Of a DNA stretch of 64,000 bases, positions 1 through 63,764 are shown in pieces; the stretch's first letter is position 1, and each line of letters begins with the position of its first letter. The notes under the pieces were generated by a model. It saw only the letters and a program-made list of their open reading frames with translations, was not told where the DNA came from and made no database searches. Source of the DNA: Sulfuritalea hydrogenivorans sk43H (GTDB lineage: Bacteria; Pseudomonadota; Gammaproteobacteria; Burkholderiales; Rhodocyclaceae); assembly GCF_000828635.1 (NCBI RefSeq), contig NZ_AP012547.1, positions 744,001 to 808,000 of the forward strand, given 5' to 3'. The translations under genes were made by a program, and so were the position numbers.

Positions 1-789
1 TCCTACGACTCGGCTGCGGTCCTGGCCCGCGAAGTGGGCGCTCGCATGGCGGCCCGGCTCGATCTGGTAAAGATCGCTCCCGCGCGCGTTGCCGACATCG
101 GCTGCGCCACGGGCGACGGCATCCGCGAACTGCAGCAGCGCTATCCGAAGGCGCAGGCGCTGGCGGTCGATTACGCGCTGCCCATGCTGCGCGCCGTCAA
201 GGACCGCACGCCGCTCACCCAGCGCATCATGCGCCGCGCGCCGCGGCTGGTAAATGCCGATGTGCGTGCCTTGCCGCTGGCCGCCAACTCCCTGGGCCTG
301 GTCTGGTCGAATCTGATGCTGCACTGGTTGGACGATCCGCTGCCGGCCTTGCGCGAATTGCACCGCGTGCTGGAAGTCGGCGGCCTGCTCAGCTTTGCCA
401 CGCTCGGCCCCGACACGCTGAAGGAATTGCGTGCCGCGGCGGCGAAAGTCGGCGCCGGCGATACGGCGCGGCGCTTCCTCGACATGCACGATCTGGGCGA
501 CATGCTGGTGGCCGCCGGCTTTGGCGATCCGGTGATGGACATGGAGCTCGTTACGCTGACCTATGCGGCGCCGCGTGCCTTTCTCGCCGATCAGCGCCAC
601 CTCGGTGTACGCGATGCATTGCTCGGTCATCAGGGCTGGCGCGACTGGCGGCGCTTGCTCGGCGCCTGGCCGCGGGATGCCGAAGGGCGGCTTCCGGCCA
701 GTTTTGAAATCGTCCATGGCCATGCCTGGAAACCCGAGCCGCGGCAGATCGCCGACGGGCGCGCGGTGGTGAAGTTCCATTCGCGATGA
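1..789 (+). CDS. bioC: Malonyl-ACP O-methyltransferase BioC (5' end outside window)
   Basis: SAM-dependent methyltransferase that would methylate malonyl-ACP to start pimelate synthesis for biotin. The reading frame is open from base 1, so the true start lies upstream; an internal ATG at 34 is not the start. The SAM-binding motif I reads VADIGCATGDG near residue 31, followed by an acidic residue after the second strand (AVDYALPML) and the post-motif NADVRALPLAANSLGLVWSN. The rest matches the BioC layout (LHWLDDPLPALRELHRVLEVGG). One copy of the dispersed 21-bp element (447-467) encodes VGAGDTA in the C-terminal half. The stop overlaps the next start (ATGA-type). No other biotin gene is visible in the window. 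A generic class I methyltransferase is the alternative. Confidence 0.8.
   Translation, partial: SYDSAAVLAREVGARMAARLDLVKIAPARVADIGCATGDGIRELQQRYPKAQALAVDYALPMLRAVKDRTPLTQRIMRRAPRLVNADVRALPLAANSLGLVWSNLMLHWLDDPLPALRELHRVLEVGGLLSFATLGPDTLKELRAAAAKVGAGDTARRFLDMHDLGDMLVAAGFGDPVMDMELVTLTYAAPRAFLADQRHLGVRDALLGHQGWRDWRRLLGAWPRDAEGRLPASFEIVHGHAWKPEPRQIADGRAVVKFHSR
447..467 (+). repeat. Dispersed 21-bp element, copy 1
   Basis: Matches AGTCGGCGYTGGCGRNACGGC except C at the T position (GCCGG variant). It lies inside bioC and reads VGAGDTA in frame. Confidence 0.8.
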
Positions 790-938
790 AGCGGGCCAAA
801 CAACGCGCGATCCGTCCGCGCAATCCATTGGTGCTCGATCCATTGCTGAAGAAGGGCGGCGCCCATGGTCGCCGGGACAAGCGCGCCAGCCGGGCGCGGC
901 AGAAGGCGGCGCTGCGGCGTCGAACCGACGAAACCTGA
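786..938 (+). CDS. Small, highly basic 50-aa protein of unknown function
   Basis: A short frame whose ATG overlaps the stop of bioC by 3 bases (ATGA), so it is translationally coupled. The 50-residue product starts MKRAKQRAIRPRNPLV and is dominated by Arg, Lys and Ala (KKGGAHGRRDKRASRARQ), with no membrane segment. The PRNPLV...KKGGAHG pattern resembles small conserved proteobacterial proteins of unknown role that I know only by sequence. The charge suggests RNA or DNA binding, which is inference. It ends just before a strong hairpin terminator. Confidence 0.55.
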   Translation: MKRAKQRAIRPRNPLVLDPLLKKGGAHGRRDKRASRARQKAALRRRTDET

Positions 939-951
939 ATGTGGCGTCGGG

Positions 952-1002
952 AAGGGCGGGAGGGTGGAGCTGAAGATTTATCGGCTCCACCCTCCCGCCC
1001 TT
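952..1002. terminator. Strong hairpin terminator after bioC
   Basis: A perfect 17-bp inverted repeat (954-970 with 984-1000), arms GGGCGGGAGGGTGGAGC and its complement, with a 13-base loop. It is followed by TTTTT on the plus strand and preceded by AA on the other. It separates bioC and the small basic gene from the pyruvate dehydrogenase operon. Confidence 0.85.
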
Positions 1003-1020
1003 TTTGCCGGGAAAATCATA

Positions 1021-3838: not shown

Positions 3839-5224
3839 ATGAGCATAGTTGAGGTAAGGGTTCCGGACATCGGCGACTTCAAGGATGTGCCGGTGATCGA
3901 AGTGCTGGTCAAGGTCGGCGACACGATCAAGGCCGAGGATTCGCTGGTGACGCTGGAATCGGACAAGGCGACCATGGACGTGCCCTCGCCCGTATCGGGC
4001 GTGGTCACCGAACTGAAGCTGAAGGTCGGCGACAAGGTGGCGGAAGGCACGCTGGTCGCGCTGATCGATTCTGCGGGCACTGCCACGGGAGTCGGCGCTG
4101 GCGGTACGGCGATTGCGGTGCCGTCGGCAGCTCCAGTGGCAACTCCGAAAGCAGCCGCACCCGATGCGGCGCCCGCTGCAGCGCGCTCCGTCGCCACCCC
4201 GCTGGGGTCGAGTGACTCGAACGCCGATTTCCGTCCGGGTGACACCGAGCTGATTCCCGTCCAGCCCCGCGTTTCCATGCCCACGCCGGCCGATCGGCTG
4301 CCCGGCCATGCGGCCCACGCCAGCCCGTCGGTGCGCCGCTTCGCGCGCGAACTCGGTGTCGATGTCGCCAGGGTGCCGGGCAGCGGTCCGAAAGGACGCA
4401 TCCTGCAAAGCGATGTGCAGGCCTGGGTCAAGGGCGTCATCAGTGGCGCGACGCCATCAACCACTCCCGCCGCGAGTTCGGGGGGGGGCCTCGATCTCTT
4501 GCCCTGGCCCAAGATCGACTTCGCCAAATTCGGTGCCATCGAGGTGCAGCCGCTGTCGCGCATCAAGAAGATTTCCGGCGCCAACCTGTCGCGCAACTGG
4601 GCCATGATTCCGGCCGTCACTTATCACGAGGACGCCGACATCACCGACCTCGAAGCCTTCCGTTTGCAGATCAACAAGGAAAACGAAAAGGGCGGGGGCG
4701 CCAAGCTGACCATGCTCGCCTTCCTGATCAAGGCTTGCGTCAAGGCAATGCAGAAGTACCCCGAGTTCAACTCGTCCATCGACGGCGACAATCTGGTGAT
4801 GAAGAAGTATTTCAACATCGGCTTCGCCGCCGACACGCCGAATGGCCTCGTGGTGCCGGTGATCAAGAACGCCGAGAATAAGGGCGTGTTCGATCTGGCG
4901 CGCGAATCCGGCGAACTGGCGAAGCAGGCGCGCGAAGGCAAGATGAAGCCCGCCGACATGCAGGGCGCCTGCTTCACCATCTCCAGCGTCGGCGGCATCG
5001 GCGGCACCGGCTTCGCGCCGATCGTCAATGCGCCGGAAGTGGCGATCCTCGGCGTCAGCAAGTCGGCCATGAAGCCGGTGTGGGACGGCAAGGCTTTCGT
5101 GCCGCGCCTGATCCTGCCGCTGTCGCTCACGGCGGACCATCGCGTGATCGACGGCGCGCTGGCGACTCGCTTCAATGTCTATCTGGCGCAACTGCTGGCC
5201 GACATGCGCAGGAGCATGCTGTGA
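3839..5224 (+). CDS. aceF: Pyruvate dehydrogenase E2, dihydrolipoamide acetyltransferase
   Basis: Core of the PDH complex; transfers the acetyl group from lipoyl-lysine to CoA. The 461 aa contain one lipoyl domain (residues 1-78, lipoyl lysine in [12 protein letters not shown]), an Ala/Pro linker, a peripheral-subunit-binding domain (SPSVRRFARELGVDVARVPG, about 162-200), a second linker, and the catalytic domain with the active-site motif ADHRVIDGALATRF near the C-terminus. E. coli AceF has three lipoyl domains; one is common elsewhere. The first linker carries a 21-bp element (4090-4110, VGAGGTA). The second linker is encoded through a run of nine G (4490-4498). The stop overlaps the GTG of the next gene. 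Confidence 0.95.
   Translation: MSIVEVRVPDIGDFKDVPVIEVLVKVGDTIKAEDSLVTLESDKATMDVPSPVSGVVTELKLKVGDKVAEGTLVALIDSAGTATGVGAGGTAIAVPSAAPVATPKAAAPDAAPAAARSVATPLGSSDSNADFRPGDTELIPVQPRVSMPTPADRLPGHAAHASPSVRRFARELGVDVARVPGSGPKGRILQSDVQAWVKGVISGATPSTTPAASSGGGLDLLPWPKIDFAKFGAIEVQPLSRIKKISGANLSRNWAMIPAVTYHEDADITDLEAFRLQINKENEKGGGAKLTMLAFLIKACVKAMQKYPEFNSSIDGDNLVMKKYFNIGFAADTPNGLVVPVIKNAENKGVFDLARESGELAKQAREGKMKPADMQGACFTISSVGGIGGTGFAPIVNAPEVAILGVSKSAMKPVWDGKAFVPRLILPLSLTADHRVIDGALATRFNVYLAQLLADMRRSML
4090..4110 (+). repeat. Dispersed 21-bp element, copy 2
   Basis: Full match to the consensus (GT at the RN positions). It sits in the codons of the aceF linker right after the lipoyl domain and reads VGAGGTA. 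Confidence 0.85.
4490..4498 (+). repeat. G9 homopolymer inside aceF
   Basis: Nine consecutive G within the codons for SSGGGLDLL, in the linker before the E2 catalytic domain. The frame is intact at this length; a slip of one base would remove the catalytic domain. Confidence 0.9.
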
Positions 5225-5802
5225 CGACACTCACCGTAGTCAAGAAGGGCGATACGGTCGCCATCGCCGCCGATGGTCTGACGACGTTTGGCGACACGCG
5301 GCTGGCGCGCAGCTACAAGGGCGAGCACGACAAGATCCTCAGCATCGCCGGTTCATGGATCGGCATCTGCGGTTCCTCGGCGCACCACCTTGTGCTGCAA
5401 AGCGCGTTCTCCAAACTGGAGGACGTCAAGCTCGGTTCGCGCATGGAAGTGTACGAGACCTTTCGCCGCCTGCATCCGATCCTCAAGGAGCACGCCTTCC
5501 TCAATCCGAAGGAGGACGAGGACGATCCCTACGAGAGTTCGCAGATCCAGGCGCTGATCGCCAACAGCTCGGGCATTTACGGTATTTATTCGTATCGCGA
5601 GGTGTTCGAGTTCGACCGCGTCTGGGCCGCCGGTTCCGGCCGCAGCTTCGCGCTGGGCGCGATGCATGCGCTTTACGACAGCGGTTTGTCGGCGCCGGAG
5701 ATTGCACGGGCCGGCGTCGCCGCGGGCATCGAATTCGATACCTCGTCCGGGCCGCCGATCGTGGTCCATGAGGTCAAGCTGGAAGGAAAGCGCGATGAGT
5801 GA
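5221..5802 (+). CDS. HslV/proteasome-beta-like Ntn-hydrolase (BPH type)
   Basis: A 193-aa Ntn-hydrolase fold protein. The GTG start is chosen because it puts Thr directly after the initiator (TTLTVVKKGDTVAIAADG), the arrangement needed for a catalytic N-terminal Thr1 in HslV and proteasome beta subunits. Counting from that Thr, Asp17 is present (AADG), and a lysine four residues beyond the HslV Lys33 position (SYKGEHDKIL) probably fills that role. The family closest in memory is BPH, the betaproteobacterial proteasome homologue that forms a self-compartmentalised double ring. No ATPase partner is nearby. It overlaps aceF by 4 bases and lpdA by 8, so it is embedded in the PDH operon. Substrates are unknown. 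Confidence 0.8.
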   Translation: MTTLTVVKKGDTVAIAADGLTTFGDTRLARSYKGEHDKILSIAGSWIGICGSSAHHLVLQSAFSKLEDVKLGSRMEVYETFRRLHPILKEHAFLNPKEDEDDPYESSQIQALIANSSGIYGIYSYREVFEFDRVWAAGSGRSFALGAMHALYDSGLSAPEIARAGVAAGIEFDTSSGPPIVVHEVKLEGKRDE

Positions 5803-7588
5803 CAGCGTTGAAGTGAAAGTCCCCGACATCGGCGACTTCAAGGATGTGCCGGTCATCGAAGTGCTGGTCAAGGTCGGCGACACGGTCAAGGCCGAGGATT
5901 CGCTGATCACGCTCGAATCGGACAAGGCGACGATGGACGTGCCCTCGCCGGTCTCGGGTGTGGTGACCGAAGTGAAGGTCAAGGTCGGCGACAAGGTCGC
6001 GGAAGGTACGCTGGTGGTGCTGATTGCGAGTGCAGCCGCTACAGCCATACCGGCACCGGCTGCGCCGACTGCCGCCGTGCCGCCAGCGCCGACTCCCGTG
6101 CCGGCCCCCGTTGCCGCTGCCGGAACATTCGCCGGCAAGGCCGACCTCGAATGCGAAATGCTGGTGCTCGGCGCCGGCCCCGGCGGCTATTCGGCGGCGT
6201 TCCGCGCCGCCGACCTCGGCATGAGAACCGTCATCGTCGAACGCTACGCGACATTGGGCGGTGTCTGCCTCAATGTCGGCTGCATTCCGTCGAAGGCGTT
6301 GCTGCATGTCGCCGCCGTGATGGAGGAAGCAGCGCACGCCGCCGATCTCGGCGTCAGCTTCGCCGCGCCCAAGGTCGATCTCGACAAGCTGCGCGCGCAC
6401 AAGGAAAAAGTGGTCGGCAAGCTGACCGGGGGACTGACCGGGATGGCCAAAGCGCGCAAGGTCGAGACCGTGCGCGGCTACGGCCACTTCCTCGATGCCA
6501 ATCATCTCGAAGTCGAGGAGACCACCGGCGCAGCGCAGGACAAGAGCGGCGGCAAGAAGGTGATTCGTTTCCAGAAGTGCATCATCGCCGCGGGCAGCGC
6601 GGCCTTCCATCTGCCCTTCATTCCGCGCGACCCGCGCATCGTCGATTCCACCGGCGCGCTGGAGCTGCCCACATTCAACAATGCGCTGCCGAAAAAAATG
6701 CTGGTCATCGGTGGCGGCATCATCGGCCTCGAAATGGCCACGGTGTATTCGACGCTGGGTGCGAAAGTCGACGTCGTCGAAATGCTCGACGGCCTGATGC
6801 AGGGGCCGGACCGCGACCTGGTTAAAGCCTGGGAAAAGCAGAATGCGAAGCGCTTCGACAAGCTGATGCTGAAGACGAAGACCGTTGCCGTCGAGGCCAA
6901 ACCCGACGGCCTCTGGGTCAGCTTCGAAGGCGAGCAGGCGCCGGCGGAAGTGCAGCGCTACGACATGATCCTGCAATCCGCCGGCCGCGCGCCGAATGGC
7001 AAGAAGATCGGCGCCGAGCAGGCGGGCGTGGCGGTGAGCGAGCGCGGCTTCATTCCGGTCGATTCGCAGATGCGCACCAACGTGCCGCATATCTTCGCCA
7101 TCGGCGACATCGTCGGCCAGCCGATGCTGGCGCACAAGGCGGTGCATGAGGCGCACGTCGCGGCCGAAGCGGCGGCGGGCCAGAAGAGCCATTTCGACGC
7201 GTCGGTGATCCCGGGTGTCGCCTACACACATCCCGAGGTGGCCTGGGTCGGCGTCGGCGAAGACGAGGCGAAGAAGGCGGGTCGCAAGGTCAGCAGCGCG
7301 AAGTTCCCCTGGGCGGCCTCGGGCCGGGCGATCGCCAACGGCGCCGAGTACGGTTTCACCAAGCTGGTGTTCGATGAAGAAACGCATCGCGTGATCGGCG
7401 GCGGCATCGTCGGTCCCAACGCCGGCGACATGATCGGCGAAATCGCGCTGGCCATCGAGATGGGCGCCGACGCGGTGGACATCGGCAAAACCATCCATCC
7501 GCATCCGACCCTGGGTGAAACCATCGGCATGGCGGCCGAGGTGGCGCACGGTTCCTGCACCGACCTGCCGCCGCTGCGCAAGCGGTAA
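5795..7588 (+). CDS. lpdA: Dihydrolipoamide dehydrogenase E3 with N-terminal lipoyl domain
   Basis: Reoxidises dihydrolipoamide of the PDH complex with NAD. The 597-aa protein has an N-terminal lipoyl domain (residues 1-80, [12 protein letters not shown] again) fused by an Ala/Pro linker to a flavoprotein disulfide reductase. Landmarks are FAD motif [18 protein letters not shown] (about residue 124), redox motif [13 protein letters not shown] (about 155), NAD motif [18 protein letters not shown] (about 308), and the catalytic dyad HPHPTLGE near the C-terminus. The ATG at 5795 is chosen because the lipoyl domain starts there. The lipoyl domain is almost identical to that of aceF. The linker holds an inverted 21-bp element (6074-6094). 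Confidence 0.95.
6074..6094 (-). repeat. Dispersed 21-bp element, copy 3
   Basis: Perfect consensus match on the minus strand, inside the Ala/Pro linker of lpdA. Because it is inverted relative to the gene it encodes AVPPAPT rather than VGAGGTA. Confidence 0.85.
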
Positions 7589-9928: not shown

Positions 9929-10012
9929 ATCGCGACGAAGCCGGGCTGCCCGGCCACGGCCACGCCGGCGATGCCGGCAACCAAAACAAGAGACCATTCG
10001 TCGACCGTTGCT

Positions 10013-10033
10013 GCCGTTTCGCCAGCGCCGACT
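10013..10033 (-). repeat. Dispersed 21-bp element, copy 4 (intergenic)
   Basis: Perfect consensus match on the minus strand in the 130-base gap between the convergent BLUF and LysR genes, so it codes for nothing here. This non-coding copy is important evidence that the element is a DNA signal. Confidence 0.85.
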
Positions 10034-15496: not shown

Positions 15497-16224
15497 CACC
15501 AATCCCCCCAAAGTGCCATCATCGCCGCCAAGGCGCCGAGTCCGGCGGTTTCCGTGCGCAGTACGCGCGGTCCCAGTCCGATGGCATGAAAGCCGGCAGC
15601 CCGCGCCGCCAGCAATTCGCCTTCTTCAAAACCGCCCTCCGGGCCTACCAGCAGGCAGATCGGCCCTTCGGGAGCCGTGAGGTCGCGCAACGACCCGGTC
15701 GCTTCGGGCGCACAGACGAAGCGTAGCCCATTCTCCTGCGCTGCGATGCCAAGGTATTGCGGCAGATCAAGAATTGGTGCGACGGTCGGGACGCGATTGC
15801 GGCCGGATTGCTCGCAGGCGGCGATGGCGATGTTGCGCCAATGCTCCACGCGGCGCTCCGCGCGTTCGCCGGAAAGCCTGACCAGGCTCCGCTTCGCGGC
15901 CACCGGCTGGATCCGCCGCACCCCCAGTTCGACCGCCTTTTGCACCACGAAATCCATCTTGTCGCTGGCGGGCAGGCCCTGCACCAGCGTCAGGGCCAGC
16001 GGCGGCTCGCAGTCGATGTCGTCGAATTCGTCCAGCGTCGCGCGCAGGGCCTTGCCGGCCGGGTGCAGCGTGGCGCGCCACTGGCCGCCGCGTCCGTCGA
16101 ACAGGATCGCCGTATCGCCGGCGCCGACTCGCAGGACCTTCAGCGCGTGGTGGGCCGCCTCGGGGGCCAGTTCCACGGTGGCGCCGGGGTGCAGCGGGAA
16201 AGGACAGAAGAATCTGGGTATCAT
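15496..16224 (-). CDS. rsmE: 16S rRNA m3U1498 methyltransferase
   Basis: SPOUT-class methyltransferase that modifies U1498 of 16S rRNA. The 242-aa protein begins MIPRFFCPFPLHPGATVEL with the PUA-like N-terminal domain (HHALKVLRVGAGDTAILFDG) and ends with the knotted SAM site LLVGPEGGFEEGELLAARAAG and LGPRVLRTETAGL. The N-terminal domain coincides with a 21-bp element (16109-16129). The frame is open far upstream, but that part overlaps a divergent gene and has no family match. First gene of the rsmE-pap-argA operon. Confidence 0.92.
   Translation of the reverse strand: MIPRFFCPFPLHPGATVELAPEAAHHALKVLRVGAGDTAILFDGRGGQWRATLHPAGKALRATLDEFDDIDCEPPLALTLVQGLPASDKMDFVVQKAVELGVRRIQPVAAKRSLVRLSGERAERRVEHWRNIAIAACEQSGRNRVPTVAPILDLPQYLGIAAQENGLRFVCAPEATGSLRDLTAPEGPICLLVGPEGGFEEGELLAARAAGFHAIGLGPRVLRTETAGLGALAAMMALWGDW
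16109..16129 (-). repeat. Dispersed 21-bp element, copy 5
   Basis: Minus-strand match (GCCGG variant, AT at the RN positions) inside rsmE, same strand as the gene, reading VGAGDTA at a place where the family naturally has a similar G-D turn. Confidence 0.75.
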
Positions 16225-21869: not shown

Positions 21870-22631
21870 ATGCTGAAAGCCCTGATCTTCGACGTCGATG
21901 GCACGCTGGCCGATACCGAGCGTGACGGCCATCGCATCGCCTTCAACGCGGCCTTCGCCGAGGCAGGCCTGGACTGGCACTGGGACGAGGCGCTGTATGG
22001 CGAACTGCTGGCCGTCACCGGCGGCAAGGAACGCATGCGCTTCTACTGCGAGCGCCACGTTCCGGCCTTTCTGGAGCAGGCCGATGCCGACGGACGCATC
22101 AAGGCCCTGCACGCGGCCAAGACCCGGCACTACCTGAAGCTGCTGGCCGCGGGCGGCATTCCGCTGCAGCCGGGGGTGGCGCGCCTGTTGCGCGCGGCGC
22201 ATGGCGCCGGCCTGCGCTTAGGCATAGCCACCACCACCACGCCGGAGAACGTCACCGCCCTGCTGCCCGCCGATCTGATGGCGCTGTTCGAGACAGTCGG
22301 CGCTGGCGACACGGTGGCAAACAAGAAACCCGCCCCCGACATCTACCTATGGGTCTTGCGTGAGCTCAACCTGCCGCCATCGGCCTGCCTGGCCTTCGAG
22401 GACTCCGCCAACGGGCTCAAGGCCGCACTCGCCGCCGGCCTGCCGACCGTGGTGACGGAAAGCGAATACACGCGCGAGCATGACTTCGCCGGCGCGCTGG
22501 CGGTGCTCTCCGACCTCGGCGAGCCGGACCGGCCAAGTGTCGCGCAGCGCGGTACCCTGCACGGGAAAGACCTGGTCGACCTTGAACTGCTGCGGATCTG
22601 GCACCGTGACGCCATAAGGCAAAACTTATGA
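21870..22631 (+). CDS. cbbY: HAD-family sugar phosphatase CbbY
   Basis: HAD-superfamily phosphatase linked to Calvin cycles; CbbY removes misfire sugar bisphosphates such as xylulose 1,5-bisphosphate that inhibit RuBisCO. The 253-aa protein has motif I LIFDVDGTLADTERDGHRIA (nucleophile Asp and the CbbY-type TERDGHR), a cap domain, motif II GIATTTTPENV, the lysine region ANKKPAPDIYLWVL, and AFEDSANGLKAALAAGLPTV. Position directly before cbbM supports CbbY over phosphoglycolate phosphatase (Gph/CbbZ). A 21-bp element (22293-22313) is in the coding sequence. The 3' end is part of the cbbM operator. Confidence 0.88.
   Translation: MLKALIFDVDGTLADTERDGHRIAFNAAFAEAGLDWHWDEALYGELLAVTGGKERMRFYCERHVPAFLEQADADGRIKALHAAKTRHYLKLLAAGGIPLQPGVARLLRAAHGAGLRLGIATTTTPENVTALLPADLMALFETVGAGDTVANKKPAPDIYLWVLRELNLPPSACLAFEDSANGLKAALAAGLPTVVTESEYTREHDFAGALAVLSDLGEPDRPSVAQRGTLHGKDLVDLELLRIWHRDAIRQNL
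22293..22313 (+). repeat. Dispersed 21-bp element, copy 6
   Basis: Matches the consensus except the final base (T for C). It is within cbbY and reads VGAGDTV. Confidence 0.75.
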
Positions 22632-24212: not shown

Positions 24213-25010
24213 ATGACCGACACTTACGCAATTCACGCCGAACCGTTTTACGCGCCGCAAGGCCGCGAGGTGCAGCTCTATGAAGCGGCCTACGCCGCGC
24301 GCCTGCCGGTGATGGTGAAGGGGCCGACCGGCTGCGGCAAGTCGCGCTTCGTCGAGTACATGGCCTGGAAACTGGGCAAGCCGCTGATCACCGTGGCCTG
24401 CAACGAGGACATGACGGCCAGCGACCTGGTCGGCCGCTACCTGCTCGAAGCCAACGGCACGCGCTGGCTCGACGGCCCGCTGACCACCGCCGCGCGCATG
24501 GGCGCGATCTGCTATCTCGACGAGATCGTCGAGGCGCGCCAGGACACCACCGTGGTGATCCACCCGCTCACCGACCATCGCCGCTCGCTGCCGCTCGACA
24601 AGAAGGGCGAGTTGATCGAAGCTCATCCCGACTTTCAGCTGGTGATCTCCTACAACCCCGGCTACCAGAGCTTGATGAAGGACCTCAAGCAGTCGACCAA
24701 GCAGCGCTTTGTCGCCTTCGACATGGACTATCCGGCGGCGGAACTCGAAACGACCATCATCGCCACCGAAACCGGGATCGACGAAGCCACGGCGGCGAAG
24801 CTGGTCAAGGTCGGCCAGGCCGGCCGCAACCTCAAGGGCCACGGCCTCGACGAGGGCATCTCGACGCGCTTGCTGGTCTATGCCGCGTCGCTGATCAGGC
24901 ATGGCGTCGACGCCACCGATGCCTGCCGCATGGCGCTGGTGCGGCCGATCACCGACGACGCCGACATCCGCGCAACGCTCGACCACGCCATTGACAACAT
25001 CTTCGCCTAG
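24213..25010 (+). CDS. cbbQ: RuBisCO activase AAA+ subunit CbbQ
   Basis: MoxR-class AAA+ ATPase that forms a hexamer and, with CbbO, removes inhibitory sugar phosphates from RuBisCO. The 265-aa protein has Walker [11 protein letters not shown] (about residue 40), Walker [13 protein letters not shown], sensor 1 [12 protein letters not shown] and the arginine segment STKQRFVAF. Its position after cbbM and before cbbO is the standard order. The C-terminal part ([20 protein letters not shown]) is typical of CbbQ/NorQ; the neighbour decides for CbbQ. Confidence 0.95.
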
Positions 25011-25020: not shown

Positions 25021-25041
25021 AGTCGGCGCTGACGACACGGC
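25021..25041 (+). repeat. Dispersed 21-bp element, copy 7 (intergenic)
   Basis: One mismatch (A for G in the central GG). It fills most of the 40-base gap between cbbQ and cbbO and is non-coding. Confidence 0.75.
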
Positions 25042-25050
25042 GACAGGATC

Positions 25051-38525: not shown

Positions 38526-39302
38526 ATGAACGATCCCGTCGCCGTCTTGCCAGCGCCGACTCCCGGTCTTCCGAAAGTCCGCCGCATAGGTTTTTCCGCG
38601 CCGCTGAAATGGCTCGGGCTGGGCTGGCGAGACCTCTGGCGGCAACCGGCGGCGAGCCTGTTCTATGGCATCGCGATCGCCGTCACCGGCGCGGTCATTC
38701 TCGGCGTGACTGCCAACCTAGCCTATCTGTTCGCCGCCGCCATCACCGGTTTTTTGCTGGTCGCGCCGATGCTGGCGGCCGGCCTCTACGAACTCTCGCG
38801 CCGCTATCTGGCCAATGAGCCGGCCTCGCTGCCGGACTCGATGCTGGCCTGGAAGCGCAACCCATCGGCGCTGGTCAGCTTCGGCCTGTTGTCGATACTG
38901 GCGGGTACCGCATGGCAGGTGGCGTCCATCGTCATCGTCGCGCTGTTCTACAAGGGCAGTGCCTTGCAGCCGCTGGCCATGATGATCGAGGTGCTGATCA
39001 ATCCACAGCACTACCTGATGTTCTTCATCTACATCTGTGCGGGCGGCGTGTTCGCGGCGGTGGTGTTCGCCCTCAGCGTGGTTTCGATGCCGATGCTGGT
39101 CGATCGTCGCTGCGAGCTGCTCTGCGCGCTGACCACCAGCATCAACGCCGTGGCCGAGAATCCGCTGCCACTGGCGTTCTGGGCTTTCGTCATCATGCTG
39201 CTGACCGGCCTCGGTTTCGCCACCGCGCTGGTCGGCCTGGTCATTGTCATGCCCTGGCTGGGACACGCCAGCTTTCATGCCTACAAGGAGCTCGTCGAGT
39301 AA
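38526..39302 (+). CDS. DUF2189-type integral membrane protein
   Basis: A 258-aa protein with six predicted membrane helices (for example LFYGIAIAVTGAVILGVTAN, AFWAFVIMLLTGLGFATALV). The layout and the AAGLYELSRRYLANEP segment match DUF2189 (YciC-like in shape), function unknown. A short cytoplasmic N-terminus contains an inverted 21-bp element (codons for VLPAPTP), so the element starts only five codons after the ATG. Confidence 0.75.
   Translation: MNDPVAVLPAPTPGLPKVRRIGFSAPLKWLGLGWRDLWRQPAASLFYGIAIAVTGAVILGVTANLAYLFAAAITGFLLVAPMLAAGLYELSRRYLANEPASLPDSMLAWKRNPSALVSFGLLSILAGTAWQVASIVIVALFYKGSALQPLAMMIEVLINPQHYLMFFIYICAGGVFAAVVFALSVVSMPMLVDRRCELLCALTTSINAVAENPLPLAFWAFVIMLLTGLGFATALVGLVIVMPWLGHASFHAYKELVE
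38541..38561 (-). repeat. Dispersed 21-bp element, copy 9
   Basis: Minus-strand match with one deviation (CAAG for CGRN). It lies within the first 12 codons of the DUF2189 gene, antisense to it. Confidence 0.75.
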
Positions 39303-44925: not shown

Positions 44926-46209
44926 TTATCGCTCAGTGTTGGCTGTCGCGAGCCAGTCCAGAACGCCGCGTCCTGCCGCACGACCGCTGGCAAGGCAGGC
45001 GGTGAGCAGATAGCCGCCAGTCGGCGCTTCCCAATCGAGCATTTCACCGGCGCAGAAAATTCCCGGAAGTTCGCGCAGCATCAGGTTTTCGTCGAGCGCG
45101 GCGAAGTCGACGCCGCCCGCGCTGCTGATGGCTTCGTCGAGCGGGCGCGGCGAAACCAGGCGCAGCGGCAGCGACTTGATGAGCGCGGCGAGTTGTGCCG
45201 GCGTGGCCAGGTCGGCGGCTTCCGCGAATTCATGGAGCAGTGCCGCCTTGACGCCGTCGATGCCGGCGCGGCGCCGCAGGTGATTGGAAAGCGAGTCGCG
45301 CCCGCGCGGATGCGCCAGGTCATTGGTCAGGCGCCGCAAGTCGCGCCCGGGGGCGAGGTCGAGCAGCAGCGTCGCGCTTCCCGTGGCTTCGATGCAATCG
45401 CGCAGCGGCGCGGAGAGCGCATAGATCAGGCTGCCTTCGACGCCGTGCGTGGTGATGAGGAATTCGCCTTCGCGCTTGACCCGCGATCCGTCAGGTGCGA
45501 CAAATTCGGCGACGATGGTTTTTACCGGAACGCCGGCGAAACGTCGGCGCAGGTGTTCGCTCCAGTCCACATTGAAACCGCAATTGGCCGGACGCAGGGG
45601 CCGGACGCTCACGCCGCGCGCCGCCAGCAGCGGCAGCCAGGCGCCATCGGAGCCCAGGCGCGCCCAACTGCCGCCGCCGAGCGCCAGCACCGTGCCCACC
45701 GTACCGCCAGCGCCGACTTTCATCTCGCCTGCCGGGGTGGCGAAGCGCAGCGCGCGGTCGGCATCCCAGCCCAGCCAGCGATGGCGCGCGTGGAACGTCA
45801 CGCCGGCGGCGCGCAGCCGGTGCAGCCAGGCGCGCAACAGCGGCGCGGCTTTCATCTCCCTGGGAAAGACGCGGCCGGAACTGCCGACGAAGGTTTCGAT
45901 GCCGAGTTCTCCCGCCCATTCGCGCAGCTGCTGCGGACCGAACTCCTCCAGCCAGCGCGCGACTTCGCGCTGGCGGCCGCCATAGCGCGACACAAACCGT
46001 TCCGAGGCTTCCGCGTGCGTGAGATTGAGTCCGCCGCGTCCTGCCAGCAGGAATTTGCGACCCATCGACGGCATGGCGTCGAAGACCTCGACGCGCAAGC
46101 CGGCAGTGCTCAGGACTTCCGCCGCCATCAGGCCGGCTGGCCCGCCGCCGACGACGGCGATTCTTTCAGTCGCGGGCAAGGTCGGCCAGTGCGTTGGCGA
46201 GGCGCACAT
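44926..46209 (-). CDS. HI0933/TIGR03862-type FAD flavoprotein
   Basis: A 427-aa FAD-binding protein of the HI0933/BaiN-like family: [20 protein letters not shown] (residues 18-37), [18 protein letters not shown], and a C-terminal FAD segment [20 protein letters not shown]. Function in the cell is not known; some relatives reduce unsaturated bonds. The ATG at 46209 overlaps rsmA by 44 bases; a TTG about 30 bases later is an alternative start. A 21-bp element (45698-45718) encodes VGAGGT in the middle of the protein. Confidence 0.82.
45698..45718 (-). repeat. Dispersed 21-bp element, copy 10
   Basis: Minus-strand match, last base T for C, same strand as the flavoprotein gene, reading KVGAGGTV. 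Confidence 0.8.
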
Positions 46210-46999
46210 AGTCGGCGACGGCGATGTCCTCGGCGCGTGCCGTGGGCGTGATGCCGAGTGCGGCGAGGTCGGCCTCGCCGATGAATTCGCGCAGGGTATT
46301 GCGCAGCATCTTGCGCCGCTGCGAGAAGGCGGCGGTCACCACGCGGGCGAACAGTGCCGGGTCCTTCGCCGTATCGCCGGCGCCGTCCCCGGGGATACCG
46401 CTTTGCATAACTCTTGAATAGTCGACGGGGATCATGCGCACGATGGCCGAGTCCACTTTGGGCGGCGGATTGAAGGAGCCGGGCGGAACGATGAACAGGC
46501 GCTCCATGTGATAGCGGTATTGCAGCATCACCGACAGCCGCCCGAAATCCTTGCTGCCCGGTTCGGCCACCATGCGATCGACCACTTCCTTCTGCAGCAT
46601 GAAGTGCATGTCATGTACCAGCGGCGCGAACCGAACCAGGTGGAACAGCAGGGGGCTGGAAATGTTGTAGGGCAGGTTGCCAACGATCTTCAGCGGCCCC
46701 GCGCCCTTCAGCGCGCCGAAGTCGAATTCGAGCGCGTCGCCTTCATGGATGCTCAGCCGTTCCGGCGGGAAGCGGCTTTGCAGGCGTGCGATGAGGTCGC
46801 GGTCGATCTCGACCACGTGCAGATGGTCGATGCGCTCCAGCAGCGGTTCGGTGATGGCGCCCAGACCGGGCCCGATTTCCACGATCGTGTCGCCGGGGCG
46901 CGGGCCGATGGCATCGACGATCCTGCGAATGATGCCGGGCGAGACGAGGAAGTTCTGGCCAAACCTTTTCCTGGCCGTATGCCCGGCGACGGTTTTCAT
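46166..46999 (-). CDS. rsmA: 16S rRNA m6(2)A1518/A1519 dimethyltransferase
   Basis: KsgA-type methyltransferase that dimethylates two adenines of 16S rRNA. The 277-aa protein has [23 protein letters not shown] motif [15 protein letters not shown], the catalytic [14 protein letters not shown] motif and [14 protein letters not shown] near the C-terminus. The ATG at 46999 overlaps the stop of the amidotransferase gene (ATGA). Position after pdxA in the lptD-surA-pdxA-rsmA line is the common proteobacterial order. Confidence 0.95.
46368..46388 (-). repeat. Dispersed 21-bp element, copy 11 (degenerate)
   Basis: Minus strand, with A for T in GTC and G for A at the first base; the rest (CGGCGCCGGCGATACGGC) matches. 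Within rsmA, reading DGAGDTA. Confidence 0.6.
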
Positions 47000-47791: not shown

Positions 47792-48772
47792 TCAGTTGCT
47801 CCGGCGCGATGCCATGTCGATCGCCGCGTCGACCGCGGCGAAGAGGCTTGTTGGCGAAGCCTTGCCGGTACCCGCGAGATCGAGCGCCGTGCCATGATCG
47901 ACCGAGGTGCGAATGATCGGCAAACCAAGTGTGACGTTGATGCCTTCGTCGAACGCCGCGTACTTGAGCACGGCGAGGCCCTGGTCGTGATACATCGCCA
48001 GTTGCGCGTCGGAGCCGGCGAGGACATTGCGGGTGAATAGCGTGTCGGCGGGCAGCGGGCCGACCAGGTCCATGCCTTCGGCGCGCAGCTTGTCCAGCAC
48101 CGGGCCGATGACTTCGATTTCTTCGCGGCCCATGTGGCCGCCCTCGCCGGCATGGGGGTTGAGCCCGGCGACGAGGATGCGCGGCCGGGCAATGCCGAAC
48201 TTGTTCCGCATGTCGGCATGCAGGATGCGGATCGTGGTTTCCAGCTCGCTCTTCGTGATGGCGGCGGGGACGTCCTTCAGCGCCAGATGCGTGGTGGCGA
48301 GCGCGACGCGCAGGCCCGCGCCGGCGAGCATCATCACCACGCGCGGCGTGCCGGTGTGTTCGGCGAGATATTCGGTGTGGCCGCTGAAGGCGATGCCGGC
48401 GTCGTTGATGATGGACTTTTGCACGGGGGCCGTGACCATCGCGGCAAACTCGCCGCGAATGCAACCGGCCAGTGCGACATCGAGCAGGTCGAGGACGTAG
48501 CGGGCGTTGGCCGGATCGAGGCGTCCCGCCAGCGCCGACTTTGGCAATGGAACATGGTGAATTTCGATGGCATTTGCATCGAGGCCGAGCATTGCCGCGC
48601 GCGCGGCAAGCAGTTCGCGGTCGCCCAGCACCACCAGCCGCGCCGGCCATTTTCGCTGCGCCAGCCGCAGGCAGATATCCGGCCCGACGCCCGCCGGTTC
48701 GCCCGAGGTGACGGCGATCACCGGCAGCGTGGAGTTGTGGCCGCTAGCGGTCTTCGCTGCGGTATTCGACAT
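47792..48772 (-). CDS. pdxA: 4-hydroxythreonine-4-phosphate dehydrogenase
   Basis: Pyridoxal phosphate synthesis (DXP-dependent route). The 326-aa protein has VIAVTSGEPAGVGPDICLRL, FSGHTEYLAEHTG, LNPHAGEGGHMGREE (metal-binding His), AMYHDQGLAVLKY and DHGTALDLAGTGKAS. The ATG at 48772 overlaps surA by 29 bases; a longer frame upstream has no family match. A 21-bp element is in the gene, in a different reading frame (SALAGRL). Confidence 0.93.
   Translation of the reverse strand: MSNTAAKTASGHNSTLPVIAVTSGEPAGVGPDICLRLAQRKWPARLVVLGDRELLAARAAMLGLDANAIEIHHVPLPKSALAGRLDPANARYVLDLLDVALAGCIRGEFAAMVTAPVQKSIINDAGIAFSGHTEYLAEHTGTPRVVMMLAGAGLRVALATTHLALKDVPAAITKSELETTIRILHADMRNKFGIARPRILVAGLNPHAGEGGHMGREEIEVIGPVLDKLRAEGMDLVGPLPADTLFTRNVLAGSDAQLAMYHDQGLAVLKYAAFDEGINVTLGLPIIRTSVDHGTALDLAGTGKASPTSLFAAVDAAIDMASRRSN
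48520..48540 (-). repeat. Dispersed 21-bp element, copy 12
   Basis: Minus strand, ending ACGCC (the S variant). Inside pdxA in a second frame, so the protein reads KSALAGR instead of VGAGGTP. Confidence 0.75.
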
Positions 48773-52989: not shown

Positions 52990-54727
<1,738 letters not shown>

Positions 54728-54729
54728 CC

Positions 54730-54846
54730 GTCCCACGGAGGGTGGGACGCCGGCGCGCGCCCCACAAGGGGATACCGTCCCTGCGGGACATAAAGCGGAA
54801 ACCCCGGCGTGCAAAGCACCGTCCCCGATGCAGGAGCACGGGGACA
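54730..54846. repeat. Hairpin cluster between murU and pepP
   Basis: Three GTCCC/GGGAC-type stems in 117 bases: GTCCCAC-GGAGG-GTGGGAC (54730-54748), GTCCC-TGC-GGGAC (54777-54789) and GTCCCC...GGGGAC (54821-54846). The block also holds CCCACAAGGGGATACCGTCCC (54761-54781), whose complement occurs with two changes in the rpiA leader. The first hairpin may end murU transcription; the whole looks like a repeat relic. Confidence 0.55.
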
Positions 54847-54852
54847 TATAAT
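54847..54852 (+). promoter_or_regulatory. Perfect TATAAT -10 box before pepP
   Basis: TATAAT lies 6 bases before the ATG at 54859, so transcription would start at or near the ATG and give a leaderless mRNA. No good -35 is present. Confidence 0.5.
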
Positions 54853-54858
54853 CGCCCG

Positions 54859-56214: not shown

Positions 56215-57301
56215 AGCAAGCCAGGCTGTCGCGATAGTCGGCGGCGGGCCCGCCGGCATGGCCCTGGCGCTGGCATTGAAGCTCCACGGCGTCACCGCAG
56301 AAATCTTCGAGGCCCGCGAACGTGCTGTTGTTAGCCGCGACGCTCGCGTGCTGGCCTTGTCCGATGGCGCGCGGCAGATACTCGAATGGCTCGGCGTCTG
56401 GTCCGGGCTTGCCGCAACATCCATCGATGCCATACATATCTCGCAGCGCGGCGGCTTTGGCCGCACGCTGTTGCGGGCGACCGAGCTCGACCTGAAAAAC
56501 CTCGGCTGGGTGCTCCCGGCCAGTGATCTGATCGCGGCGCTCGACGCGGCCGTGAGCGCCGCCGGGATTGTCTACCGTGAGCGAACAAGAGTCGGCGCTG
56601 GCGAGACGGCAATGTTTCCGCTGACGGCCTATGCCGAGGGTGCTGTTGAAGCCGGCGCCGGCGAGATGCGTGACTACGGGCAGCACGCCGTGCTGTGCAG
56701 CGTGAGCGTGGCGGCACCGCATCGCAATGTTGCCTGGGAACGTTTCACCAGCGATGGCCCGGTCGCGCTGTTGCCGCTCGGTGACCGCTACGCCGTGGTG
56801 TTGACCTGTGCGGACGAAACCGTTGCGGACGTCAAGGCGCTCGACGATGCGGCCTTCCTCGCCCTGTTGCAGCAGCGTTTCGGCACGCGCCTGCGCTTCA
56901 CCGCCGCAAGTCCGCGCACTGCCTATCCGCTCGGACTGCGCTATCGTCCCGACCCGGTGGGCGAACGCCAGGTCTGGCTCGGCAATGCCGCGCAAACTTT
57001 GCATCCGGTCGCTGGGCAGGGCTTCAATCTCGGTTTGCGCGACATCTGGGAACTGGCGCAGTCCCTTGGGGCGGCGACCGATCCCGGCGCACCGGAAGTG
57101 CTGGCCGCCTATGCGCGCGGCCGCCAGGTCGACCGGCGCGGGGCGATCGCCTTCACCGATCTGCTGATCGACGGCTTTGCCTCGGGTTTCCCGCCCTTGA
57201 AGCATGCGCGCGGCGCCGGTCTGCTGGCGCTGGACTTGTTGCCGCCGCTGCGAGCATTTGTGGCGAAGCGCATGATTTATGGTGCCAGGGCATGGCCCTG
57301 A
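56204..57301 (+). CDS. ubiH: UbiH-like ubiquinone-biosynthesis FAD monooxygenase, shortened
   Basis: Flavin monooxygenase of ubiquinone ring hydroxylation. From GTG 56204 (overlaps pepP by 11 bases) the protein has 365 aa against about 390 usual. FAD motif IVGGGPAGMALALALKLHG, RDARVLALSDG, and the C-terminal GNAAQTLHPVAGQGFNLGLR are intact. Between residues 125 and 155 it is shortened: the 21-bp element codes VGAGETA there, and the usual ADG..S fingerprint appears as AYAEGAVEAG. It could still fold, as the frame is clean, but its activity is less sure. UbiF/VisC-type relatives are the alternative. Confidence 0.8.
   Translation: MAAEASQAVAIVGGGPAGMALALALKLHGVTAEIFEARERAVVSRDARVLALSDGARQILEWLGVWSGLAATSIDAIHISQRGGFGRTLLRATELDLKNLGWVLPASDLIAALDAAVSAAGIVYRERTRVGAGETAMFPLTAYAEGAVEAGAGEMRDYGQHAVLCSVSVAAPHRNVAWERFTSDGPVALLPLGDRYAVVLTCADETVADVKALDDAAFLALLQQRFGTRLRFTAASPRTAYPLGLRYRPDPVGERQVWLGNAAQTLHPVAGQGFNLGLRDIWELAQSLGAATDPGAPEVLAAYARGRQVDRRGAIAFTDLLIDGFASGFPPLKHARGAGLLALDLLPPLRAFVAKRMIYGARAWP
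56590..56610 (+). repeat. Dispersed 21-bp element, copy 14
   Basis: Full consensus match inside ubiH (VGAGETA). A second, degenerate relative lies 50 bases on (56651-56665, GCCGGCGCCGGCGAG). Confidence 0.82.
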
Positions 57302-60375: not shown

Positions 60376-60378
60376 GCC

Positions 60379-61647: not shown

Positions 61648-61651
61648 GACA

Positions 61652-62800
61652 ATGATCCTCCCTCCAGCCACGCTCGGCATGCTCGGCGGCGGCCAGTTGG
61701 GCCGCTTCTTCGTCATCGCCGCCCACGAACTGGGCTACCGCGTCGTCGTCCTCGATCCCGACGCGCAGAGTCCCGCCGGGCGCATTGCCGACCAGCATCT
61801 GGTGGCCGCCTACGACGATCCCGATGCGCTGAACCGGATGGCCGAGTCCTGTGCCGCGGTGACCACCGAATTCGAAAATGTGCCGGCGGGCAGCCTGGCC
61901 TATCTGTCGAAATTCCTTCCGGTGCGTCCGAGTGCCGAGGCCGTCGCCATCAGCCAGAATCGTAGCGCGGAAAAAGGCTTTCTCAAGCAGCACGGCTTTC
62001 CTCACGCCCCCTACACGGATGTGCGCAGCGAAGCCGACATCGCGCAGGCCAACGCGGGCTTGTTTCCCGGCATCCTCAAGGTGGCCCGCTTCGGCTACGA
62101 CGGCAAGGGGCAGGTGCGGGTACAGAACCGCGAAGAAGCGCTGCTCGCCTTCCGCCAGTTGAAGCACGAGCCCTGCGTGCTCGAACAAATGCTGCCGCTC
62201 GATTACGAAGTCTCGGTGGTGCTGACGCGTGATGCGGCCGGCGTGGTGAAGTGTTTCCCCACTGCCGAGAACAGCCACCGCCACGGCATCCTCGATGTGT
62301 CGATCGTGCCGGCGCGCACCTCGGGCTGTGTTGCCGGCAATGCACAGGAGATCGCCGAGGGCATCGCACAGAAAATGGATTATGTCGGCACCCTGGCGGT
62401 CGAGTTCTTCATCGTGCGCGGCCAGCTCTTCGTCAACGAAATGGCGCCGCGGCCGCACAACTCGGGGCATTACACGATCGATGCCTGCGTCACCAACCAG
62501 TTCGAGCAGCAGGTGCGGGCGCTCACCGGCCTGCCGCTGGGCGAGGCGCGCGCGCATTCGGCCGCGGTGATGGTGAATCTGCTCGGCGATCTGTGGTACC
62601 TGAAGGACCCCCATCACAGCCACGAACCCGACTGGGCGAAGCTGCTCGCGGTGCCGAATCTGAAGCTGCATCTCTACGGCAAGCACCACGCCAGGCCGGG
62701 GCGCAAGATGGGCCATTTCACCGTGATCGGCAGCGATGCGCAGAAAGTGCAGGAGTCGGCGCTGGCGGCACGGCGATTGATCGGCATTCAGGATGACTGA
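61652..62800 (+). CDS. purK: N5-carboxyaminoimidazole ribonucleotide synthase
   Basis: Carboxylates AIR with bicarbonate and ATP; needs PurE, which is not in this window. The 382-aa ATP-grasp protein has LGMLGGGQLGRFFVIAAHEL, VTTEFENVPAGSL, LKVARFGYDGKGQVRV and NEMAPRPHNSGHYTIDAC. The 3' end carries a 21-bp element in a non-VGAGG frame (ESALAARR). Its stop overlaps the tsaC start. Confidence 0.95.
   Translation: MILPPATLGMLGGGQLGRFFVIAAHELGYRVVVLDPDAQSPAGRIADQHLVAAYDDPDALNRMAESCAAVTTEFENVPAGSLAYLSKFLPVRPSAEAVAISQNRSAEKGFLKQHGFPHAPYTDVRSEADIAQANAGLFPGILKVARFGYDGKGQVRVQNREEALLAFRQLKHEPCVLEQMLPLDYEVSVVLTRDAAGVVKCFPTAENSHRHGILDVSIVPARTSGCVAGNAQEIAEGIAQKMDYVGTLAVEFFIVRGQLFVNEMAPRPHNSGHYTIDACVTNQFEQQVRALTGLPLGEARAHSAAVMVNLLGDLWYLKDPHHSHEPDWAKLLAVPNLKLHLYGKHHARPGRKMGHFTVIGSDAQKVQESALAARRLIGIQDD
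62754..62774 (+). repeat. Dispersed 21-bp element, copy 15
   Basis: Perfect consensus match at the 3' end of purK, in the frame that reads SALAAR. Confidence 0.85.
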
Positions 62801-63764
62801 GCTGGCTCGCGCAGTCGCCTTGCTGCGCGCCGGCGAACTGGTCGCCTTTCCCACCGAGACCGTTTATGGCCTTGGCGCCGATGCGAGCAATCCGCAGGCC
62901 ATTGCCAAAATATTTGCGGCCAAGGGCCGGCCCGCCGATCATCCGCTGATCGTCCATTTGCCCGACGCCTCGCATCTCGAACGCTGGGCTGTCGACATTC
63001 CCGATACGGCCCGAAAACTCGCCGCCGCATTTTGGCCGGGCCCCCTGACGCTGATCCTCAAGCGCCACCCTTCGGTGTCCGATGCCATCACCGGCGGCCA
63101 GGACACGGTCGGCCTGCGCGTGCCGAACCATCCGCTGGCCCTGCAATTGCTGTGCGAATTCGGTGGCGCGAATGGTGGTGGATTGGCCGCGCCCTCGGCC
63201 AATCGCTTCGGCCATGTCAGCCCGACCACGGCGGCGCATGTGCGCGAGGAGTTCGGCGATGCCGTGGCGATGATCCTCGATGGCGGCCCCTGCGACGTCG
63301 GCATCGAATCCACCATCCTCGATCTCTCCGGCAGCGAACTGCGGATACTGCGCCCCGGCATGATTGATGCGGCCGACATCGGCGCGGTCCTGGGGCGTGC
63401 TCCGGAATTCGGCGGTACGCAGAACGCGCCGCGCGTCTCCGGCAGCCTCGAAGCGCACTATGCGCCGCGCACGCCCTTGCAGCTGGTGGCCGCGGAAGCG
63501 CTTGCGGAAACCGCGCGCCAGGCACTCGACACCGGCCGGCGCGTTGCCGTACTGGCCAACCAGCCGCTCGCCTTCAGCCACGACAAGCTCGTCTGGCGTT
63601 CCGCCAGCGCCGACCCGGCGCAGTTCGCCCACGATCTGTATGCCCGGCTGCGCGAACTCGATGGCATCGGCTGCGATCTGCTCCTGGTTGCCGCCCCGTC
63701 CGCCGAAGAAGCCTGGCGAGCCGTGGCAGACAGATTGCGGCGCGCTGCGGCGGGATCGAAATAG
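62793..63764 (+). CDS. tsaC: L-threonylcarbamoyladenylate synthase, Sua5 type
   Basis: Makes threonylcarbamoyl-AMP for the t6A modification of tRNA. The 323-aa protein is the two-domain Sua5 form: YrdC domain (LRAGELVAFPTETVYGLGAD, KIFAAKGRPADHPLIVHL, AAPSANRFGHVSPTTAAHV, DGGPCDVGIESTILDL) plus the C-terminal Sua5 domain after the linker RPGMIDAADIGAVL and SGSLEAHYAPRTPLQLV. It overlaps purK by 8 bases. The C-terminal domain contains an inverted 21-bp element. The last conserved residues are present, so it is complete. Confidence 0.92.
   Translation: MTELARAVALLRAGELVAFPTETVYGLGADASNPQAIAKIFAAKGRPADHPLIVHLPDASHLERWAVDIPDTARKLAAAFWPGPLTLILKRHPSVSDAITGGQDTVGLRVPNHPLALQLLCEFGGANGGGLAAPSANRFGHVSPTTAAHVREEFGDAVAMILDGGPCDVGIESTILDLSGSELRILRPGMIDAADIGAVLGRAPEFGGTQNAPRVSGSLEAHYAPRTPLQLVAAEALAETARQALDTGRRVAVLANQPLAFSHDKLVWRSASADPAQFAHDLYARLRELDGIGCDLLLVAAPSAEEAWRAVADRLRRAAAGSK
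63595..63615 (-). repeat. Dispersed 21-bp element, copy 16
   Basis: Minus strand, first base G for A and ACGCC end; antisense to tsaC in its C-terminal domain (protein reads WRSASAD). Confidence 0.72.

What the first reader, a model, noticed from the sequence alone, without database searches (positions are those of the whole stretch)
447..63615. Dispersed 21-bp DNA element, 16 copies in 64 kb, both strands
Consensus AGTCGGCGYTGGCGRNACG (plus GSC) occurs at 447, 4090, 6074(-), 10013(-), 16109(-), 22293, 25021, 26805, 38541(-), 45698(-), 46368(-, weak), 48520(-), 54897(-), 56590, 62754 and 63595(-). Seven copies are on + and nine on -, two are intergenic, and coding copies fall in several reading frames and both orientations relative to the gene (VGAGGTA, SALAAR, PPAPTP). 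So it is conserved as DNA, not as peptide. Chance occurrence of such a motif about every 4 kb is not credible even at high GC. Balanced orientation argues against a polar Chi or KOPS-like signal and fits a DNA-uptake-sequence-like or protein-binding element. I do not recognise it as a described repeat.
Basis: partly seen in the sequence, partly recalled or inferred. Interest (0 to 1): 0.85.

Follow-up and report, generated by a model that had tools for sequence, protein, structure and literature searches.

The report
Likely DNA-uptake tag in lake bacteria
A 22-25 letter DNA word is repeated hundreds of times in Sulfuritalea and several related genera, in genus-specific spellings, and most probably marks their DNA as 'own' for natural transformation; if so, this would be a third bacterial family with such a tag.

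Summary
The 19-bp core (up to one mismatch) occurs 591 times in the 3.80-Mb genome, 291 on + and 300 on -, against 0 for the reversed pattern. The full motif is about 25 bp, RARAGTCGGCGCTGGCGRYACGGCGA, near 34 bits. All 31 genomes searched of the window's genus (Sulfuritalea, by nearest named relatives) carry 24-627 copies. In the family, at least 10 of 68 sampled genera carry it or a dialect. In 386 genomes of the order's other families the canonical-like form stays at 16 or fewer (reversed control up to 15). Dialects largely keep two arms, AAAGTC and ACGGCG, 12 bp apart, around a changed centre. About 65% of sites lie in genes although about 84% of DNA is coding, and spacing is even in this genome. 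These are marks of uptake sequences. ComEC and a ComP_DUS-type pilin are present but do not track the motif. Best reading: an undescribed uptake-sequence system. Uptake is untested; a chromosome-organising binding site is the main rival. A rarer hairpin insert sits inside some copies. No held paper prints the core.

The parts
447..468 (+). motif copy in a BioC-like methyltransferase gene (34-789)
   Evidence: 22-mer, 1 mismatch
4090..4111 (+). motif copy in dihydrolipoamide acetyltransferase gene (3839-5224)
   Evidence: perfect 22-mer
6073..6094 (-). motif copy, antisense, in lipoamide dehydrogenase gene (5666-7588)
   Evidence: perfect 22-mer
10012..10033 (-). motif copy between called genes, just past the stop of a LysR-type regulator gene (10059-11003)
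   Evidence: 1 mismatch
16108..16129 (-). motif copy in rsmE (16S rRNA m3U1498 methyltransferase), same strand as the gene
   Evidence: 1 mismatch
22295..22316 (+). motif copy in a HAD-family hydrolase gene (21870-22631)
   Evidence: 1 mismatch
25021..25042 (+). motif copy between called genes 24213-25010 and 25051-27342
   Evidence: 1 mismatch
26805..26826 (+). motif copy in called gene 25051-27342 (no NCBIfam match)
   Evidence: 1 mismatch
38540..38561 (-). motif copy, probably intergenic, upstream of the model match of a weakly BPSS1780-like gene
   Evidence: 1 mismatch; state in relatives
45697..45718 (-). motif copy in a TIGR03862 flavoprotein gene (44926-46209)
   Evidence: 1 mismatch
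46367..46388 (-). weak motif copy that is the 3' part of a longer E1 element (46367-46412)
   Evidence: 3 mismatches; E1 match at 46381 on -
48519..48540 (-). motif copy in pdxA (47792-48877)
   Evidence: 2 mismatches; motif also at this place in L063 and L067, at about 71% nucleotide identity
54896..54917 (-). motif copy, antisense, at the upstream end of the called Xaa-Pro aminopeptidase frame (54670-56214), about where the model match begins
   Evidence: 2 mismatches
56590..56611 (+). motif copy in a UbiH-like gene (56204-57301)
   Evidence: 1 mismatch; longer E1- or E2-type inserts occur here in some relatives
56650..56668 (+). weak copy of the 19-bp core
   Evidence: 3 mismatches
62754..62775 (+). 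motif copy at the 3' end of purK (61652-62800)
   Evidence: perfect 22-mer
63594..63615 (-). motif copy, antisense, in the called frame of a threonylcarbamoyladenylate synthase gene (62793-63764), past the model match
   Evidence: 3 mismatches

Best explanation
The motif is a DNA uptake sequence, working as DUS does in Neisseriaceae and USS in Pasteurellaceae. Shown: hundreds of copies per genome on both strands, clade-specific dialects, excess outside genes, even spacing in this genome. Inferred: a type IV minor pilin, possibly the ComP_DUS-type pilin at G000:C1:3023878 onward, binds the roughly 25-bp site on extracellular DNA; the pilus pulls it in; ComEC passes a single strand; recombination then spreads tagged alleles, so copies build up wherever the sequence tolerates them. 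The two arms (AAAGTC and ACGGCG, 12 bp apart) would be the more constant contacts and the centre the dialect that separates lineages.
For: Abundance with zero reversed control (31 of 31 genomes of the genus). Dialects that replace the canonical form: AGTTGGCG in G001 and G027, TAGCG in about half the G189 sites, ACTC...GGCGGCG in G305, AGTCGACG in G098, AGTCAGCCGTGG in genus g90, AGTCAGTC in G063, found de novo and supported by the arms pattern in 3 of 4 genomes of its genus. In genes 62 of 95 sites although 84% of the sample is coding; the same excess outside genes in G063 and G132; H. influenzae USS is 65% in ORFs against about 86% coding (PMC2346458, passage). Gap CV 0.555 against 0.875, 0 of 5000 random placements as even; even spacing is reported for known uptake sequences (PMC1939737, passage). 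ComEC in 292 of 297 genomes of the family. Pilin P0001 has PF16732 ComP_DUS as its best Pfam family (4.5e-11) and four cysteines. Weak: the first 13.7 kb of L144, with RecT and DUF3799 genes of prophage type but also guaA and guaB, holds no site, and a 20-kb stretch with surface-sugar genes holds one.
Against: No uptake or binding data. ComEC is nearly universal in the family, and PF16732 pilins occur in 55 of 61 and 35 of 36 genomes with and without the motif, so neither tracks it; motif-bearing G098 has no PF16732 match. By raw identity sites are no better kept than neighbouring 22-mers (45 of 108 against 670 of 1583). Even spacing was not seen for the G063 dialect (p 0.74) and is weak in G132 (p 0.057). 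There are no closely paired inverted copies, unlike many DUS/USS; the nearest opposite pair in the sample is 366 bp apart. The motif is longer than the 9-12 nt of known systems (PMC12616744). Other motif-free stretches were a ribosomal operon and an efflux/sulfatase region, which do not point to transfer.
Confidence: 0.72

Rival explanations
1. The sites are bound by a cytoplasmic architectural or segregation protein, and evenly spaced non-polar sites organise the chromosome; dialects reflect co-evolution with that protein.
For: Even spacing in G000; two arms at constant spacing in several dialects suggest one protein contacting both; balanced strands. Nothing here shows that the binding protein is on the cell surface.
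Against: Centre sequences change between species of one genus, which is fast for a chromosome protein (inference); single species have nearly lost the sites (G016, G293, G205); spacing is not even in G063.
Confidence: 0.16
2. The motif is the empty target or scar of a family of tiny hairpin inserts (E1, E2) and spreads as a mobile repeat.
For: 14 of 19 E2 copies have the motif's 5' part just upstream and 16 of 19 have ACGGC(G) just downstream; E1 and E2 stand where others have the plain motif in relatives; site blocks are gap-rich (88 of 123 against 174 of 777 control blocks).
Against: Only 19 E2 copies at up to 3 mismatches against 591 motif copies; even spacing and genus-wide dialects do not suit copy-paste spread. 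The samples of other genomes (40-80 kb each) were too small to tell whether E2 occurs there.
Confidence: 0.07
3. A polar replication or recombination signal (Chi, KOPS) or a restriction-modification site.
For: High copy number, fixed sequence.
Against: 291 against 300 copies by strand; 18 + and 18 - in the first ten sampled stretches, 20 + and 23 - in the last ten (the replication origin was not located); about 25 bp is long for such signals (general knowledge).
Confidence: 0.03

Closest known systems
DNA uptake sequence (DUS) and its dialects, Neisseriaceae, receptor ComP
   Same: Abundant copies, clade-specific dialects, some genomes of the family without it (PMC3630211, abstract and passages)
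   Different: About 25 bp instead of 10-12; CTG is not kept in all dialects here (GTG in g90, CTA in part of G189), and 21% of G000 sites have C for T there; no closely paired inverted copies; receptor unproven
Uptake signal sequence (USS), Pasteurellaceae, predicted receptor ComN
   Same: Fraction in ORFs (PMC2346458, passage), even spacing (PMC1939737, passage), a longer extended form (PMC12616744, abstract and passages)
   Different: Different sequence (USS core recalled, not searched); longer; more dialects than the two named for USS
REP/BIME-type or palindromic mini-inserts (recalled)
   Same: The E2 and E1 hairpin elements found inside some copies resemble these in size and form
   Different: The 22-bp motif itself is not a palindrome by eye, has unrelated flanks and is about 30 times more numerous than E2

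Membership tests
Uptake sequences (DUS/USS class) | Hundreds of copies, far above expectation, on both strands | tested here: met
   591 against 0 reversed, 291/300 by strand; 31 of 31 genomes of the genus above their reversed control, lowest G016 with 24
Uptake sequences (DUS/USS class) | Excess outside genes while most copies are still coding | tested here: met
   62 of 95 in genes against 84% coding; G063 35 of 46 against 88%, G132 24 of 43 against 80%; gene calls failed in G199
Uptake sequences (DUS/USS class) | Even spacing | tested here: inconclusive
   G000 0 of 5000 simulations as even; G199 p 0.015, G132 0.057, G063 0.74
Uptake sequences (DUS/USS class) | Clade-specific dialects | tested here: met
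   Six besides the canonical form
Uptake sequences (DUS/USS class) | Scarce on recently acquired DNA | tested here: inconclusive
   Few stretches: one with prophage-type genes has none, one with surface-sugar genes has one; a ribosomal operon and an efflux/sulfatase stretch have none either
Uptake sequences (DUS/USS class) | Competence machinery present | tested here: inconclusive
   ComEC in 292 of 297 and pilin genes in G000; PilQ, PilT, ComEA and DprA were not searched; not discriminating
Uptake sequences (DUS/USS class) | Sequence-specific surface receptor | tested here: inconclusive
   ComP_DUS-type pilin present, specificity unknown
Uptake sequences (DUS/USS class) | Preferential uptake of motif-bearing DNA | not testable with these tools
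   Needs a transformation assay
Neisseriaceae DUS | CTG core conserved in all dialects | tested here: not met
   GTG in g90 and CTA in part of G189 at these positions; definition from PMC3630211 passages
Neisseriaceae DUS | Inverted pairs acting as terminators | tested here: not met
   Closest opposite pair 366 bp apart in 464 kb
REP/MITE | Palindromic unit copied by a transposase | tested here: not met
   Motif not self-complementary by eye, flanks unrelated; no transposase was sought
Chi/KOPS | Polar orientation along replichores | tested here: not met
   291/300 by strand; 18/18 and 20/23 in the two halves of the sample; origin not located

The most novel reading that the evidence does not exclude
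A third, independently evolved uptake-sequence system, in Sulfuritalea and related genera, with a two-arm code: outer arms largely constant across genera and a centre that changes as a species barrier; and a set of hairpin inserts, of lengths that are multiples of three, that dock inside these sequences, using the tags as permissive sites.
Probability: 0.45. Interest if true: 0.93.

Novelty: new variant of a known kind. Interest (0 to 1): 0.86.

Why it matters
[quoted passage not shown] A third family, of environmental bacteria with many dialects and some members that have nearly lost the tag, would let the origin, drift and loss of uptake specificity be compared, and would show that self-tagging is not special to host-associated bacteria.

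Tried and rejected
My first guess at the genus, Candidatus Accumulibacter (looked up), was wrong: the best named relatives are Sulfuritalea MAGs. Genus restriction, suggested, was rejected. ComEC and PF16732 were tried as markers of motif-bearing genomes; neither discriminates. A conservation test found no excess identity at motif sites over neighbours; its four 'motif-less' loci were picked after seeing that they lacked copies. Rfam (gathering threshold) and tRNA scans of the window were empty. A first pilin extraction read minus-strand loci on the wrong strand and is replaced, where 2 of 36 proteins (G252, G106) were dropped for lack of a recognised prepilin site. Evenness tests leave out stretches with fewer than 3 sites (in G000 L136, L137 and L152; 18 of 21 used). 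K-mer enrichment in G016 gave a weak word (GTTGTGGCAGGT, z about 10, 8-9 copies) without conserved flanks, and repeat-like words in G034. Searches for print: (listings only); one search found four papers with one 12-letter term, on plants by their titles. Papers seen: PMC3630211, PMC1939737, PMC12616744 and PMC2346458, abstract and passages only.
Full report
What is there. In the window the 19-bp core occurs 17 times at up to 3 mismatches, against 0.72 expected. The window is G000:C1:744001-808000 of a 3,802,648-bp single-contig genome with 291 + and 300 - copies at up to 1 mismatch and none for the reversed pattern. The three best named relatives of a window protein (PdxA, 87-88% identity) are Sulfuritalea MAGs; that the genome itself is S. 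hydrogenivorans sk43H is recall from its size. NCBI places Sulfuritalea and Sulfurisoma in Sterolibacteriaceae; many of the named MAG relatives are labelled Rhodocyclaceae or Rhodocyclales. 'Family' below means the family group f1 of the genome collection.

Motif. From 95 sites (up to 3 mismatches) in the window plus 400 kb sampled evenly, positions -3 to +22 are informative: R A R AGTCGGCGCTGGCGRY ACGGCG A, about 34 bits; beyond that only weak positional preferences are seen. At up to 4 mismatches the 400-kb sample has 24 perfect, 31 one-, 17 two-, 7 three- and 10 four-mismatch sites against 3 in the reversed control.

Distribution. All 31 genomes of the genus carry 24-627 copies; the 30 genomes of other genera in the same call had 0-4. 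A wider scan of 297 family genomes (68 genera) shows that genera g32, g43, g62, g70 and g88 also carry it in the hundreds. A degenerate pattern adds g69 (128 in its one genome) and g90 (105-227 in four of six). The arms pattern, on one genome per genus with a few more, adds g34 (413-491 in three of four) and g47 (96 against 2) (g47 76 against 1). With g1 that makes at least 10 of 68 genera. G078 (17 against 3) and G094 (14 against 1) are slightly raised. Of 399 genomes of the order, 386 lie outside the family; their counts of the canonical-like 22-mer at up to 3 mismatches reach 16 at most, with reversed controls up to 15. G047, of another family, has 4 canonical copies. Dialects with another centre could escape that scan; the arms pattern was tried on only 6 genomes outside the family, none clearly raised. 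Named loci with exact canonical cores include Sulfurisoma (L085, L099). Members with few or no copies sit inside positive genera: G016 (24; 87 against 8 control at up to 3 mismatches), G293 (0), G205 (9 against 6), G229 and G272 (3 and 4), G136 (0, 1). ComEC was found in all of these except G229, an 80%-complete assembly, and was missing from motif-bearing G200 (85% complete).

Dialects. G001 and G027: AGTTGGCGCTGGCGNNACGGCG (AGTT in 10 of 15 and 11 of 16 sites at up to 4 mismatches). G189: AAAAGTCGGCGCTAGCGRNACGGCA (A at that place in 6 of 11). G305: AAAACTCGGCGCTGGCRRGGCGGCG (ACTC in 11 of 14) (all). G098: AGTCGACGCTGGNGATACGGYR, read from listed copies. Genus g90: AGTCAGCCGTGGYGGNACG, often followed by CCG in listed G166 copies. 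G063, whose contig length equals that of Candidatus Desulfobacillus denitrificans AP021857.1: AAAAGTCAGTCNCNNCRGNACGGCG, found without prior knowledge by k-mer over-representation. The arms-only pattern RAAGTC-N12-ACGSCG gives 491 copies in G063, 660 in G061 and 568 in G091 against 6, 7 and 1 in the control. It does not fit all: G305 departs in both arms, and G072 of the same genus gives only 7 against 4.

Placement. With my own simple gene caller 39 sites are in genes on the gene's strand, 23 opposite, 33 outside, while 84% of the sample is coding. The excess outside genes recurs in G063 (11 of 46 against 12% non-coding) and G132 (19 of 43 against 20%). Gaps between neighbours are much more even than random in G000 (CV 0.555 against 0.875, 0 of 5000), less clearly in G199 (p 0.015) and G132 (0.057), and not in G063 (0.74). 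Of the 20 sampled 20-kb stretches two have no copy and one has a single copy: an efflux/sulfatase region, a fusA-tuf-ribosomal operon, and a stretch with surface-sugar genes; the first 13.7 kb of L144, with RecT and DUF3799 genes but also guaA and guaB, is also empty (selected proteins only were scanned).

Evolution of sites. In 31 of the 80 fetched related loci, 70 of 91 alignable sites fall at a window site, 20 more could not be aligned; by my estimate chance would give well under 1% per site. Yet raw identity at sites is not above neighbours (45 of 108 against 670 of 1583), because sites lie in gap-rich places (88 of 123 blocks against 174 of 777). In four loci chosen for having one copy or none, none of 16 site comparisons is conserved, against 102 of 212 neighbours. 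Reading (inference): the motif occupies permissive spots, is maintained while the system runs, and decays quickly after loss.

Mechanism. Uptake sequence is the best reading (0.72). Shown: abundance, dialects, placement. Inferred: receptor, uptake bias, drive. The receptor candidate is the pilin at G000:C1:3023878 onward (P0001; PF16732, four cysteines), beside two further pilin genes (FimU- and PilW-like by recall). PF16732 pilins also occur without the motif, so this is a lead only; sequence search against solved structures gave other pilins, none named ComP.

Hairpin inserts. E2 (19 copies in G000 at up to 3 mismatches) sits inside the motif: AGTCGGCGCYGGC, then about 39 bp including GCGTACCTGGRATTCCGCTTCGCGGGCAGG, then ACGGCG, 36 bp longer than the motif; 14 of 19 have the 5' part and 16 of 19 the 3' part. 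E1 adds 24 bp after AGT. Both lengths are multiples of three (my count). At two gene positions (46367 and 56590) some species hold the plain motif and others E1 or E2.

Known systems. Neisseriaceae and Pasteurellaceae are called the only families known with such motifs (PMC12616744, passage). CTG is kept in all Neisseriaceae DUS dialects (PMC3630211, passages) but not here. So this looks like an uptake sequence without being DUS or USS. No held paper contains the core as searched (other searches).

Noticed in passing
window 46367-46412 (-); L174-L192: E1 and E2 hairpin elements lie inside copies of the motif and stand in for the plain motif between species at two gene positions.
   Followed up: partly
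G135:C1:1461268-1502246; G180:C1:1672226-2003359; G109 contigs C66 and C104: In genomes otherwise nearly free of the motif the few copies are grouped (5 of 7 within 41 kb in G135, 5 of 6 within 331 kb in G180), as if DNA had arrived from a motif-bearing lineage or, for fragmented G109, by contamination.
   Followed up: no
G000 sample, words GACGGTATCC / ACGGTATCCC: Second over-represented word with varied flanks (10-11 against under 1 expected); it resembles part of E1.
   Followed up: no
L244-L253 (G034): Repeat-like words (AGGTTGGGGTGAGCGCAGCGATGCCCAACA; TGTGGGAGCGGCGGCC) in a genome nearly free of the motif.
   Followed up: no
window 3848-4065 and 5807-6024: 218-nt direct repeat at 89% identity, in the genes of dihydrolipoamide acetyltransferase and lipoamide dehydrogenase, probably duplicated lipoyl domains.
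   Followed up: no
L284-L363: Viral-contig collection holds at least 120 stretches with the exact 22-mer; of the 80 listed, 74 have one copy; host flanks of proviruses not excluded.
   Followed up: no
3' arm of the motif: Its reverse complement CGCCGT shares GCCGT with Neisseria DUS (recalled sequence); may be chance.
   Followed up: no
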